Assembly (NCBI GenBank): GCA_026929865.2
Contig: CM049408.1
Coordinates: 26,129,501-26,193,500 of the forward strand
Reading direction: 5' to 3'
Source of the DNA: Hyperoplus lanceolatus
Lineage: Eukaryota; Chordata; Actinopteri; Uranoscopiformes; Ammodytidae
DNA length: 64,000 bases
Of this stretch, positions 15,501 to 24,500 are shown piece after piece (position 1 is the stretch's first letter; the number at the start of each line of letters is the position of its first letter). The notes under the pieces are model-generated. The model was not told the origin of the DNA and did no database searches. It saw only the letters and a program-made list of their open reading frames with translations. The position numbers and the translations under genes are program-made.

Positions 15501-18500
15501 CAGCTTTCCTGGCCTGAGCAGCTGCTTTTCTGACTGTGTGTTCGGCTTTAGCTGTCTGTCCTCCTGAACCCGGCTCCTGTGGACTCTGCCTGTTTTATCA
15601 CCTTCCTGTGTGTTTGTGTGTATTTTTCGGTGACTGTGTTTGTGTATTTGTGTGTCTTCCCCTCTTGCAAATATGATGAGACAGACTCCGGCACCCCGGA
15701 AGGTACAGAAACTCCTTATAATCGTCCTCATGCGTTTGGGATGTTGTTGCTATGGTTGTTGTCGTCATCCATTTGTTTTTGTGGGCAGATTCTGCTGTAA
15801 AAGGTCATGCTTGGAAGTTTAAGTTATTCTTAATTTTGTTGTTGAGTTACCTTTTTTTAATATGGTATTTGATATTCTCAGTTTGGAAGTACAATTGAAT
15901 GTGCCAATAAGGTTTTTTTTTATTTTAATTTTTTTTTATTTTGTGAGTTCAATGTTATTTCTGCAAACTCATAGTGACATTTTTGCAGACTTTGCCTTTT
16001 GCCTTCACTTGTGTCTGCAGCAATGTGTGTAGGCTTTTTCTGTCATTCCAATGGACATCAGTGTATCTCTGTGTATATTTTAATTTGGCCTCATGATGCA
16101 GAAGCTTACCACAACATTTAATGAGGTCAGAGCAATTTTTTTTCTTTTTTTGACCCTCCAAGGGAGAATGACATCATTTCAGGCTGATGTGATTAGAGTA
16201 CAGCCTGTTCTAGCATCCTGACATTATGACACTTAGGACGGCTGTCATCTCTTGTTTTGGTACTGCTGTTAGCCCGGGATCATTTCTGCTGAATGGGATG
16301 GCTGTGTAATCCAATAAAGGACGATAACCAGCCAGAGAGACGGCCGTGCCCCAGGCCCAAGCAGAGAGAGAGAGAGAGAGAGAGAGAGAGAGAGAATGCA
16401 AAGGACAGTGAAGTGTGCAGACCTGGGTTACATCATGTTTTGATGACAAAAAAGAAAGCCTTGTACGTAATTTGATCGCCATATAGTGCAGACATTCTGC
16501 ACAATATATGACTCATCTCAGTATACAATTATAACAACGTTCACTTATTCTAGTAGTTGTTATGGCTACAGATTGAGTTTGCTAAACATTTTTCCTAATG
16601 ACTATTTTATCTCTGAACAGAAAATGTTATGGAGAATTTGAAGGTAATGCTGTAGAATTATGGTCCAGCCCTAAACCTTGGCATGTTCTAGTAAATACAG
16701 TTTGAAATTTGAAAATATTTCATGGTCCTTAAGGTCTAGAAATAATATTAACTATAAATATAAGTCACCTCGTAAAAGTTACTTGAGAACATAATAGTTG
16801 GTTGGTTTGTCCAATTTCTTCTCCAACCAGCAGTGTTACCCAGGTCTGCTGGACAGACTCTACATAAGAACAATAGTCGGGGGGCCAAAGTCTCAAAAAT
16901 GGGTTGGACCTGACATGGTCTGATATACTTTTTATTTGAGTTTTTTCTGTTAACTTTGATCCCAAGACACAATAATTGGAGGGTCTGCTCTGCCGGAAAT
17001 ATCGCGAAAAAAAATTGTGGCTATTTTAGTGTATGTATCCGTAATTTTTTGATAGAAATATTGGGAAAATCAAAATTTTCCTCAAATCCATAGTGGGTTG
17101 GGTAAGCTGTCAATAAATGCATTCCAGGTGTAAAGAACACATGTGGTGACAAAATACTATGAAAAAATTACTTTTAAAACACATTCCTACATGATTTTGG
17201 CTCAATTTAATGCAAAGAAATTAGACGTTTTCTCACTTTTTTCCAATATTTTCATCTTTACTTCATTGGCAATAAACTATTCCCTCAAGTTATGACATCA
17301 GTCAATATGCCATTCTCTTCCCTAATCAGTATACTCATTCCACAAAAAGAAATTATAAAAATCCAACCAAAATCAATGGATCTGTGATGATTTCACTACG
17401 AGTTGGCGATCAACAGGCTCAGAACCTCAATAGAATTTTTAGTCCAGCAGATAGGTGCAATATATGAAGGAATTGTGCTTTTGATGATACAAACATGAGA
17501 TTTGGCACAATGTTAGAGAATGCCCTAAGGAAGATTTTTGGCTATAGGGCCATCGCCAATTTTTCCTATGGTTGCCATGGTGGCCATTTTCTAAAATGGC
17601 CGCCATTGGCTGTTATAGTATAGGTAGCTTGGGTTCTAGAGCACCTAGGATCTTGATTATGGTGTCTAATCCTACATTTTCAAGGATGAAAAAGGCAGTG
17701 GTTCTATTTAAAACATGCTAGAAAGTAACCAACTTCATATATCTGGCATTCAGGGAACAAAATGATGGTAAAACCTTCAAATATTAGCGGCGTAATTCGT
17801 ATTTTCATGAATTACATAAATAGTTCATGAGTTGTGTGCTGACCTTATATGCTTACAAGTAAATATCTATTTCAAAGCCTGACCAATACATCGGTTTAAC
17901 CTGTTTGAGTGGTGAAATTGCTATTTTATCCGTGTAACCCACTCTGAGTAAGTCAGCATTGCTCTAGGTTCCGAAGGAGCTAAGTGATATAAACAGTTAC
18001 CACAAGGAAAGTACCAGGCAAGGTGAGTTGCAAGCAGTAACTTATACTCACATAAAGTTGTAGTTAACACCCAAAACACATATGCATAGGCATCATTGGA
18101 AAATAAAAACATTGGGCATTTAAAATAAATGAGTGTTGTCAATAGTCCTTTTAGTCTGTTCTGTATTCACTTCCGGATGATCAATCCACTGTCAGTGGTT
18201 CTCTGTTAAACTGTCTGTAACTGGTCCTGTGACAGTTCTTGGAAAGGATGTGTGTAGCAGTCCAATGGATGTGTATATCCTGGTGACTGGTACGTCCCTA
18301 CCACATGTGGAGTATTTCATGAGTCGGTTCCTCGTCCTGGAAGGATCACACTGGGAGGCTCGCCATCATGGGCATAAATTGCTTATGGACGGTGTGGACG
18401 TGTCCATACCATGGTCCATACCAATATTCAAATGTGCTGAAATTGTCCACACCAATATGAGAACGAGATGACAACGACGAGAAAGGGTTAATGCGTTGCC

Positions 18501-21500: not shown

Positions 21501-24500
21501 CTAGGCAATGCTTGAAACAGATGATGGTTGCAGCCCTGAACTCCCATCACCAGGTGAATGGGGGTGGAAGTGGAAAGCCAGGTGGATAGGAAGTTCACTG
21601 GACAAACTTCCAGAAGCGACCCAGGCCTGTCGCAAATCCTCTGCTGTGGATGCAAATAGGGTTGCAGTCGACATTGCAAATGTTTCAAGCAGTACTACAG
21701 TGACTGCCCTTTGCCACTGTGGTGGACTGTGTTTTCAGAAATAATTATAAATGTGTTGATGGTTTTATTGTGATTTAATTCCTGAATGCCATATATCTTG
21801 TATGTAGTTTAGCATTCCTCATTCTTATACAATTAGAATTAGCCAAATTTGTATGTTCAAATGATGCCTATGATATGTGTTTTGGGTGTTAACTACAACT
21901 TTATGTGAGTATAAGTTACTGCTTGAACTCACCTTGCCTGGTACTTTCCTTGTGGTAACTGTTTATATCACTTAGCTCCTTGAACCTAGAGAATGCTGAC
22001 TTACTCAGAGTGGGTTACACGGATAAAATAGCAATTTCACCACTCAAACAGGTTAAACCGATGTATTGGTCAGGCTTTGAAATAGATATTTACTTGTAAG
22101 CATATAAGGTCAGCAACAACTCATGAACTATTTATGTAATTCATGAAAATACGAATTAGCGCTAATATTTGAAGGTTTTACCATCATTTTGTTCCCTGAA
22201 TGCCAGATATATGAAGTTGGTTACTTTCTAGCATGTTTTAAATAGAACCACTGCCTTTTTCATCCTTGAAAATGTAGGATTAGAACCATAATCAAGTCCT
22301 AGGTGCTCTAGAACCAAGCTACCTATACTATAACAGCCAATGGCGGCCATTTTAGAAAATGCCACCATGGCAACCATAGAAAAATTGATGGCCCTATAGC
22401 CAAAAATCTTCCTTAGGGCATTCTCTAACATTGTCCAAATCTCATGTTTGTATCATCAAAAGCACAATTCCTTCATATATTGACCTATCTGCTGGACTAA
22501 AAATTCTATTGAGGTTCTGAGCCTGTTGATCCCAACTTGTAGTGAAATCATCACAGATCCATTGATTTTGGTTGGATTTTTATAATTTCTTTTGTGGAAT
22601 GAGTATACTGATTAGGGAAGAGAATGGCATATTGACTGATGTCATAACTTGAGGGAATAGTTTATTGCCAATAAGTAAAGATGAAAATATTGGAAAAAAG
22701 TGAGAAAACGTCTAATTTCTTTGCATTAAATTGAGCCAAAATATGTAGGAATGTGTTTTAAAAGTAATTTTTTCATAGTATTTTGTCACACATGTGTTCT
22801 TTACCTGGAATGCATTTATTGACAGCTTACCCAACCCACTATGGATTTGAGGAAAATTTTGATTTTCCCAATATTTCTATCAAAAAATTACGGATACATA
22901 CACTAAAATAGCCACAATTTTTTCGCGATATTTCGGCAGAGCAGACCTCCAATTATTGTGTCTTGGGATCAAAGTTAACAGAAAAAACACAAATAAAAAG
23001 TATATCAGACCATGTCAGGTCCAACCCATTTTAAAGAGCTTTTGAGACTTTGGCCCCCTGACTACAATGTGTGGATCTTTCTCTGCACACTTCACTGAAA
23101 CAAGGGGATGCAGCCAGTGGATAACGAGCCATTCTTCCAGCGCTGTCTGCAGTTTGAAAACTGGGCCGAGACACAATGCAGTCAGTCATTTAGGTCACAG
23201 CATCCGTACCAGACACAGTCTCCATGTTGTTAAGGAGGGTTTTTTGGTGGAAGAGATGAGACTAGTTATAACAAGAGTGTCGAGACGGAAAGAAACTGAT
23301 CAGAGATGAGATCTGGATGTTACATGATAATGGCTTCATTGTGGGCCTTAAAGCTATAGTGTGTAACTTTTTCATATAAATGAATGTCGGTTACATTCAA
23401 GCCATCGCCCAATGGATTCATACAATGTTGATCCAAGCCTATCTCAGTATGGCAGTTACAAACTTGTGTCGACCCCCTGACACAGTGCAGGAACTCAGAC
23501 AAACCCCAAGAAGCGCCCAAGAAATGTTTTTTATTTTTATTTTGATTATACTGATAAGAATGAAACCTGGACGTAGGGCAGAAGGTGTATCCATGCACGA
23601 TCAACGAAGGCTTTACCTCATGTAGATGCGCTGACAGTGTTGTTGTAATTACTCAGAATTCCTCATGGGGGCGACAGACGTAACGCACTATAGCTTTACA
23701 GAGAAGTAGCAGGATTCATATCATGTCAGCTTCATCCGCTCATATTGTCCTATTTTCCTGTGATGTGTAGTTTAATATGAAGTGTGCCCTTGAATCACTA
23801 ACCCTGGATGTTTGTTTCCCTCCCTCCTTTCCTACTTCCTACTTCCTCTCCTCTTCAGACCGTGGCCAGAAGGCCCAAGGTGAGCCCAGTCTCCAAAGTC
23901 TTCAGGGCTTACCATTTTTATCAACATTTATCTATTTGCGATTGTTGTTGTTGCGCTTCATGCAGCTGTGTGTGTGTGTGCGCGTGTGTGTGCGTGTGTG
24001 TGTGTGTGTGTGTGTGTGTGTGTGTGTGTGTGTGTGTGTGTGTGTGTGTGTGTGTGTGTGTGTGTGTGTGTGTGTGTGTGTGTGTGTGTGTGCAAGCCTC
24101 TGTGTTGCCAAACAGCAGTGACAATACATCACCAGACATGATGCCAAATCCATTTTTAATTTCATTCAAGGTTCATTAAAGGAATGAGTTTTTGGTTCAT
24201 AGCACTAATATGTTTCCACTCAGTTGAACATAATCTTGCACATTGCTGTTTTTATTCAACCTTTTCAGCCATTTTGACATTCTTCACTTTGACATTTACA
24301 GCAGGAACACTATGTCCCGTCTACACAGAGTATTCCACCATTCATATTTTCAAAATTTTTATATTATTTCTGTAGTTGCTTTTGTTCAGTTTTGTCCTTT
24401 TTATTTGTTCTAATAAGTTCAGGAGCAATTATGCACATTAAAGGTTTGTTTGCTTCCTAATTTTGGTTTTATGCTTTTTTATTTTTTCAGTATATTTTTG

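What the first reader, a model, noticed from the sequence alone, without database searches (positions are those of the whole stretch)
16875..23063. 6.2-kb transposon with 1.2-kb inverted arms, 5-bp target duplication and an unclassified, nuclease-like protein
Directly seen: near-identical inverted arms (16875-18096 and 21858-23063), ends AGTC(A/G)GGGGGCCAAAG, and ACAAT on both sides. From memory of recurring 'uncharacterized' fish and cnidarian proteins: the order FVVMFGG, ALRRWMV, LDGAALVNML, EEADTR, VDTDVLVLAV, GCDTVS and CHCGGLC. Inference: EEAD, DTD and GCD are spaced like the acidic clusters of FEN/PIN nucleases, an unusual fold for a cut-and-paste element. I cannot name its superfamily. 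It is the best candidate in the window for a little-described system.
Basis: partly seen in the sequence, partly recalled or inferred. Interest (0 to 1): 0.78.

Follow-up and report, generated by a model that had tools for sequence, protein, structure and literature searches.

The report
AcademX-type transposon with FEN-like nuclease
This is a broken copy of a jumping DNA element, apparently in an animal genome, whose relatives encode one large protein that joins an ordinary cut-and-paste transposase to a second, repair-type (flap/EXO1-like) nuclease; it fits an already named group, Academ, so it is a useful but not a new kind of element.

Summary
The 1.2-kb inverted arms and coding fragments are where stated. 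Nineteen loci with both ends (20 end pairings) show a 3-bp target duplication (here CAA) and ends TAGTC...GACTA: 17 of 20 pairings fit 3 bp, 1 of 20 (the window) fits 5 bp. ACAAT is A-CAA-T; the element's own terminal T/A was read as duplication.

The nuclease guess is right: in a relative, the C-terminal half models as a FEN/EXO1/XPG-type nuclease, followed by a CXC module. But the N-terminal half models as a DDE transposase; the first 35 rows of the structural second look are DDE transposases or RAG1. Of 51 long relatives among the listed hits, 50 keep both active sites. DDE core, nuclease and 3-bp duplication together match published AcademX; no Academ reference sequence could be compared. 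The window copy is defective: the first two DDE aspartates are missing, and many frame breaks look like assembly base drops. New member of a known kind; what the second nuclease does in transposition remains open.

The parts
16871..16873 (.). target site duplication, left copy (CAA)
   Evidence: 17 of 20 end pairings show a 3-bp duplication at this register
23065..23067 (.). target site duplication, right copy (CAA)
16874..18096 (+). left inverted arm, outer end TAGTCGGGGGGCCAAAG
21858..23064 (-). right inverted arm; 21 gap columns (about 17 places) are found in this arm alone of 36 arms compared
17578..17605 (.). imperfect palindrome TGGTGGCCATTTTCTAAAATGGCCGCCA about 0.7 kb inside the left end; the corresponding site in the right arm is at 22341-22353
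19525..20022 (+). remnant of the DDE transposase half in pieces: VAKQIQW 19525-19545, FVVMFGG 19576-19596, and the helix motif with the third catalytic residue (AYELNN 19924-19941); the stretches with the first two Asp are missing
20022..20574 (+). region between transposase and nuclease halves, frame-broken pieces
20620..21307 (+). FEN/EXO1/XPG-like nuclease half, frame-broken: LDGAALVNML 20620-20649, VWDQY 20744-20758, HEEADTR 20957-20977, VDTDVLVLAV 21036-21065, GCDTVS 21209-21226
   Evidence: fold from relative P0116; conservation
21642..21741 (+). C-terminal cysteine-rich CXC (Tesmin/TSO1-like) module, in two frames (CCGCK 21642-21656 to CHCGGLC 21712-21732)
   Evidence: PF03638 E 5.9e-5 on the distant relative L030

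Best explanation
It is a defective copy of an Academ DNA transposon of the AcademX kind. Long relatives are about 1,500 aa: N-terminal Cys/His segments that look zinc-binding (my reading of the sequences), a DDE (RNase H fold) transposase core with a helical insertion, a FEN/EXO1/XPG-type nuclease, and a CXC module. Shown here: dispersed copies with matching ends and 3-bp duplications, and coupled conservation of both active sites in relatives. Inferred: the DDE core cuts the transposon's 3' ends and joins them to target strands 3 bp apart; the FEN-like half cuts the other (5') strand, or trims 5' flaps left after joining; the Cys-rich modules hold the ends and perhaps the palindromes inside the arms. 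The window copy cannot make an active protein as it reads, and could move only in trans.
Confidence: 0.82

Rival explanations
1. An unnamed superfamily close to, but distinct from, Academ: a DDE-plus-FEN transposon that converged on 3-bp duplications.
For: No direct comparison with Academ sequences was possible (the AcademH paper is not held); Pfam knows the core only as DUF6589, matched weakly and in some relatives only.
Against: The uncommon pairing of transposase with nuclease plus a 3-bp duplication is what is published for AcademX.
Confidence: 0.12
2. One reading: the FEN/PIN-like nuclease is itself the transposase and there is no DDE core.
For: The FEN-like half has the clearer structural match and is strongly conserved; the window copy lacks the first two DDE aspartates; Foldseek is weak for the other half.
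Against: The N-terminal half models as a DDE transposase, with D, D and E kept in 50 of 51 long relatives.
Confidence: 0.03
3. Academ element whose nuclease half is passenger or regulator (for example repair) and not part of the cutting and joining steps. This concerns the role of one domain and overlaps with the best explanation as to what the element is.
For: 12 of the 20 fetched stretches carry an internally deleted form with no match to the nuclease part, and 11 of these differ by 1.4% on average (range 0.3-2.4%), so DNA without the nuclease gene spreads; but it may be moved in trans.
Against: All seven acids are kept together with D, D, E in 50 of 51 long relatives, and in L030, which argues for a standing role.
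Confidence: 0.25

Closest known systems
AcademX lineage of the Academ superfamily (Kojima 2020, as cited in PMC10045372)
   Same: DDE-class superfamily, encodes a nuclease, 3-bp duplication here (3 or 4 published), similar length
   Different: 1.2-kb arms and this particular family are not described in the passages I read; sequence kinship not tested
AcademH lineage of Academ
   Same: Same superfamily by the literature
   Different: Encodes a helicase and makes 9-10 bp duplications; here nuclease and 3 bp
P element and hAT (Hermes) transposases
   Same: Best structural matches of the DDE half; [quoted passage not shown]
   Different: 3-bp instead of 8-bp duplications (8 bp recalled); fused FEN-like nuclease
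EXO1/FEN1/XPG nucleases
   Same: Fold and seven acidic positions of the nuclease half (equation with FEN1/EXO1 residue numbers is recalled)
   Different: Part of a transposon protein; roughly 8-15% identity in the listed structural alignments
Tesmin/TSO1-like CXC proteins (PF03638)
   Same: C-terminal Cys motif; Pfam match in L030
   Different: One module at the end of a transposon protein; Pfam gave no CXC match in the 12 relatives scanned

Membership tests
Academ (AcademX) | 3- or 4-bp target site duplication | tested here: met
   17 of 20 end pairings 3 bp; control 30 of 378
Academ (AcademX) | encodes a nuclease (XPG type; the word XPG is recalled) and not a helicase | tested here: met
Academ (AcademX) | DDE transposase | tested here: met
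   model of relative P0123: rows 1-35 of 50 are DDE transposases or RAG1, though Foldseek alone is weak; D, D, E kept in 50 of 51. Not intact in the window copy
Academ (AcademX) | transposase groups with reference Academ transposases | not testable with these tools
   no reference sequence held; PMC7165386 not held
Academ (AcademX) | terminal sequence typical of Academ | not tested
   no reference termini read; here TAGTC...GACTA
Academ (AcademH) | helicase and 9-10 bp duplication | tested here: not met
   3-bp duplication, 9 and 10 bp in 0 of 20 pairings; no helicase match in 12 relatives
FEN/EXO1/XPG nuclease superfamily | PIN-like fold with seven acidic active-site residues | tested here: met
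   (relatives; in the window copy the motifs are present in pieces)
P element / hAT superfamilies | membership by sequence | tested here: inconclusive
   structural likeness only; no Pfam match to those families in 12 relatives

The most novel reading that the evidence does not exclude
The protein is a genuine two-nuclease transposase: the DDE core handles only the transferred strand, while the fused FEN/EXO1-like domain makes the second-strand cut or removes 5' flaps, so these elements would use a division of labour not known (from recall) in hAT, P, RAG or Tc1/mariner elements, with the palindromes inside the arms as its substrate or binding site.
Probability: 0.35. Interest if true: 0.65.

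Novelty: new member of a known kind. Interest (0 to 1): 0.38.

Why it matters
It resolves a recurring 'uncharacterized' animal protein family into domains (DDE transposase, FEN-like nuclease, CXC) that Pfam barely annotates, and ties it to defined ends and a 3-bp duplication. That makes the open question, what a flap-type nuclease does inside a DDE transposon, testable. It also shows how a terminal T/A next to a target site can make a 3-bp duplication look like 5 bp.

Tried and rejected
Sequence-only search of solved structures gave nothing useful for the read-through or the family profile (best E 0.25, 0.69). Pfam on the window read-through: 0 families. NCBIfam on three proteins: one sub-threshold match, unrelated. 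Literature: DUF6589, 0 papers; Academ with XPG, 2 papers, unrelated by title, and 0; flap endonuclease with transposase terms, 8 listed, none on this family by title and start of abstract; DNA transposons with FEN1/PIN terms, 5 listed, none on it by the same; XPG/CXC terms, 610 papers of which 20 were listed, none on it by the same. Searches listed general papers on Academ and other superfamilies. Viral contigs: 24 pattern hits, 0 relatives. Prokaryote genomes: 2 relatives among 26 pattern hits, both on contigs of under 7 kb that I judge to be eukaryotic contamination. The 5-bp duplication was tested and rejected. Dating the insertion by arm-to-arm differences was given up: 21 gap columns occur in this right arm alone of 36 arms. 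FEN/PIN as sole transposase was rejected. The genome search with window 18110-19000 did not complete, so the origin of that stretch is untested. The structural second look does not exclude families that are not in its list. The last protein search, the third fold search and the viral structure library were not used.

Full report
What was checked. The window lies in an 806.7-Mb genome of 527 contigs, given without a name. The arms are real: blastn pairs 16875-18109 with 23063-21848 at 96.3% over 1,245 columns, and the end motif is found twice, against a largest count of 0 in 100 shuffles.

The duplication. A genome search with the left arm gave 45 matches from 40 scored of 424 first-look candidates, so this is a lower bound; two matches are only 30 bases long. 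I fetched 20 stretches; arm matches at three further places (C5:17813927, C11:15483397, C6:17221250) were not fetched. Both ends were found in 18 of the 20; with the window that makes 19 loci and 20 end pairings, because L015 has two possible right ends. The base outside AGTC is T in 19 of 20 rows and the base outside GACT is A in 19 of 20. Taking these as the outermost bases of the element, a 3-bp direct repeat fits 17 of 20 pairings; a 5-bp repeat directly outside AGTC/GACT fits 1 of 20, the window. When left and right flanks of different loci are paired, 30 of 378 agree at 3 bp. The misses are the two L015 pairings and L025. The window's ACAAT is therefore A-CAA-T.

The protein family. A read-through of the window's broken protein, pieces joined by X, found 625 proteins at E <= 0.001 among 7,997 scored candidates, 120 of them listed; the best is 63% identical over 96%. 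A second search with residues 1-540 of P0116 found 656 proteins, 120 listed, many of about 1,490-1,540 aa. Pfam sees DUF6589 in some of them: relatives were scanned and 3 passed the curated cut-off (P0019, P0021, P0209). It sees a CXC module in the distant relative L030 (PF03638, E 5.9e-5).

Coupling. In an alignment of 239 sequences (the 238 proteins listed by the two searches, and the L030 frame), 51 are 1,400 aa or longer; 50 of the 51 keep D, D and E together with all seven nuclease acids, the exception having N for the second D. The L030 protein, 31% identical to P0002, keeps all of them. Of the 51, 47 have eight or more Cys in the last 70 residues. Two active sites kept together speak for a protein that uses both.

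The window copy. DNID and DQPL are not found in the three forward frames of 18001-22000, and tblastn with P0116, whose second Asp is residue 271, begins at residue 277, so the first two DDE aspartates are missing; about 80 residues after FGGFHI also have no match (P0002 116-198). Against its near copy L009, the stretch from 19,875 to the right end shows 56 gap events in the window, 1 in L009, and 19 mismatches. In an alignment of 36 arms (18 loci; L025, L027, L028 not included), 21 gap columns in about 17 places occur in the window's right arm alone. I read this as base drops of the assembly, so many frame breaks may not be biological; this is inference, as reads are not held. The longest stop-free stretch in any of the 20 fetched stretches is 284 codons (L025). 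Other families of the same protein in this genome are nearly open: 72 matches to P0002 from 49 scored of 834 candidates, and L030 has an unbroken frame of 1,347 aa.

Comparison. PMC10045372 (passages) states that AcademX generates 3- or 4-bp and AcademH 9- or 10-bp duplications and links the difference to the nuclease and helicase they encode. PMC9004415 (passages) lists Academ among DDE superfamilies. PMC10294476 (passages) gives a mean of 5,565 bp for curated bivalve Academ elements. The primary AcademH paper is not held. That X stands for XPG is recalled. The features tested here agree with AcademX; sequence kinship could not be tested.

Mechanism. Shown: dispersal with fixed ends and a 3-bp duplication, and both active sites conserved in relatives. 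Inferred: DDE-catalysed joining of 3' ends at target positions 3 bp apart, with the FEN/EXO1-like half acting on the 5' strand, either as the second-strand cut or as removal of a 5' flap, as in transposase-mediated resection of 5' flaps in phage Mu (start of the abstract of PMC3325207 in the listing). A palindrome, TGGCGGCCATTTT-NN-AAAATGGCCGCCA, lies about 0.7 kb inside the ends; it is also found in L031, a family about 55% identical in protein (E 6e-8 and 3e-6), and weakly in L029 (E 0.06). It is a candidate binding site, untested.

Verdict. An ordinary member of an uncommon, thinly characterised superfamily, with a well-supported domain reading and an open mechanistic question.

Noticed in passing
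window 19875-23063: 56 gap events against the near copy L009 with 19 mismatches, and 21 gap columns seen in this right arm alone of 36 arms: looks like an unpolished stretch of the assembly.
   Followed up: partly
window 17578-17605 and 22341-22353; L031 4669-4696 and 4839-4866; L029 48-86: Palindrome TGGCGGCCATTTT-NN-AAAATGGCCGCCA shared by the arms and by L031 (E 6e-8), weakly by L029 (E 0.06); resembles a YY1 site (recalled). L031 also has an 18-base match to the arm at 4961-4978 (E 0.06, may be chance).
   Followed up: partly
window 30812-30898: Short relic similar to the arm (57 bases at 82%, 87 bases at 75%) inside what looks like an intron of a dynactin-1-like gene (gene name from reading the exons, recalled).
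   Followed up: no
L012, L013, L014, L017, L019-L024, L026, L028: Twelve of 20 fetched stretches carry the same internally deleted form with no match to P0002 residues 462-864, the nuclease part; 11 of them (L028 not included) differ by 1.4% on average, so this form spread recently.
   Followed up: partly
L015 6511-6760: The complete right end is followed by a roughly 17-base inverted copy of the left flank and then a second right end of about 200 bases: looks like a template switch during repair of a transposition intermediate.
   Followed up: partly
L030 848-4891 (-): Unbroken 1,347-aa frame of a distant relative (31%) with both active sites, CXC module and an acidic tail; only weak AT-rich inverted repeats in the 6 kb fetched: a low-copy active lineage or a host-adopted gene.
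   Followed up: partly
L032, L033 and P0075: Relatives filed under a Planctomycetota MAG, a mussel gill symbiont and a Sedimenticola MAG; probably eukaryotic contamination of those records.
   Followed up: no
window 18110-18900: Stretch between left arm and protein that aligns poorly with L009 and holds a possible first exon (MSGKKRKGEDIWNYFHQTT, followed by GTAAGT); may be a nested insertion. The genome search for it did not complete.
   Followed up: no
L022 and L028: Share at least 31 bases of right flank, so may be a segmental or assembly duplicate; L028 was not in the duplication count.
   Followed up: no
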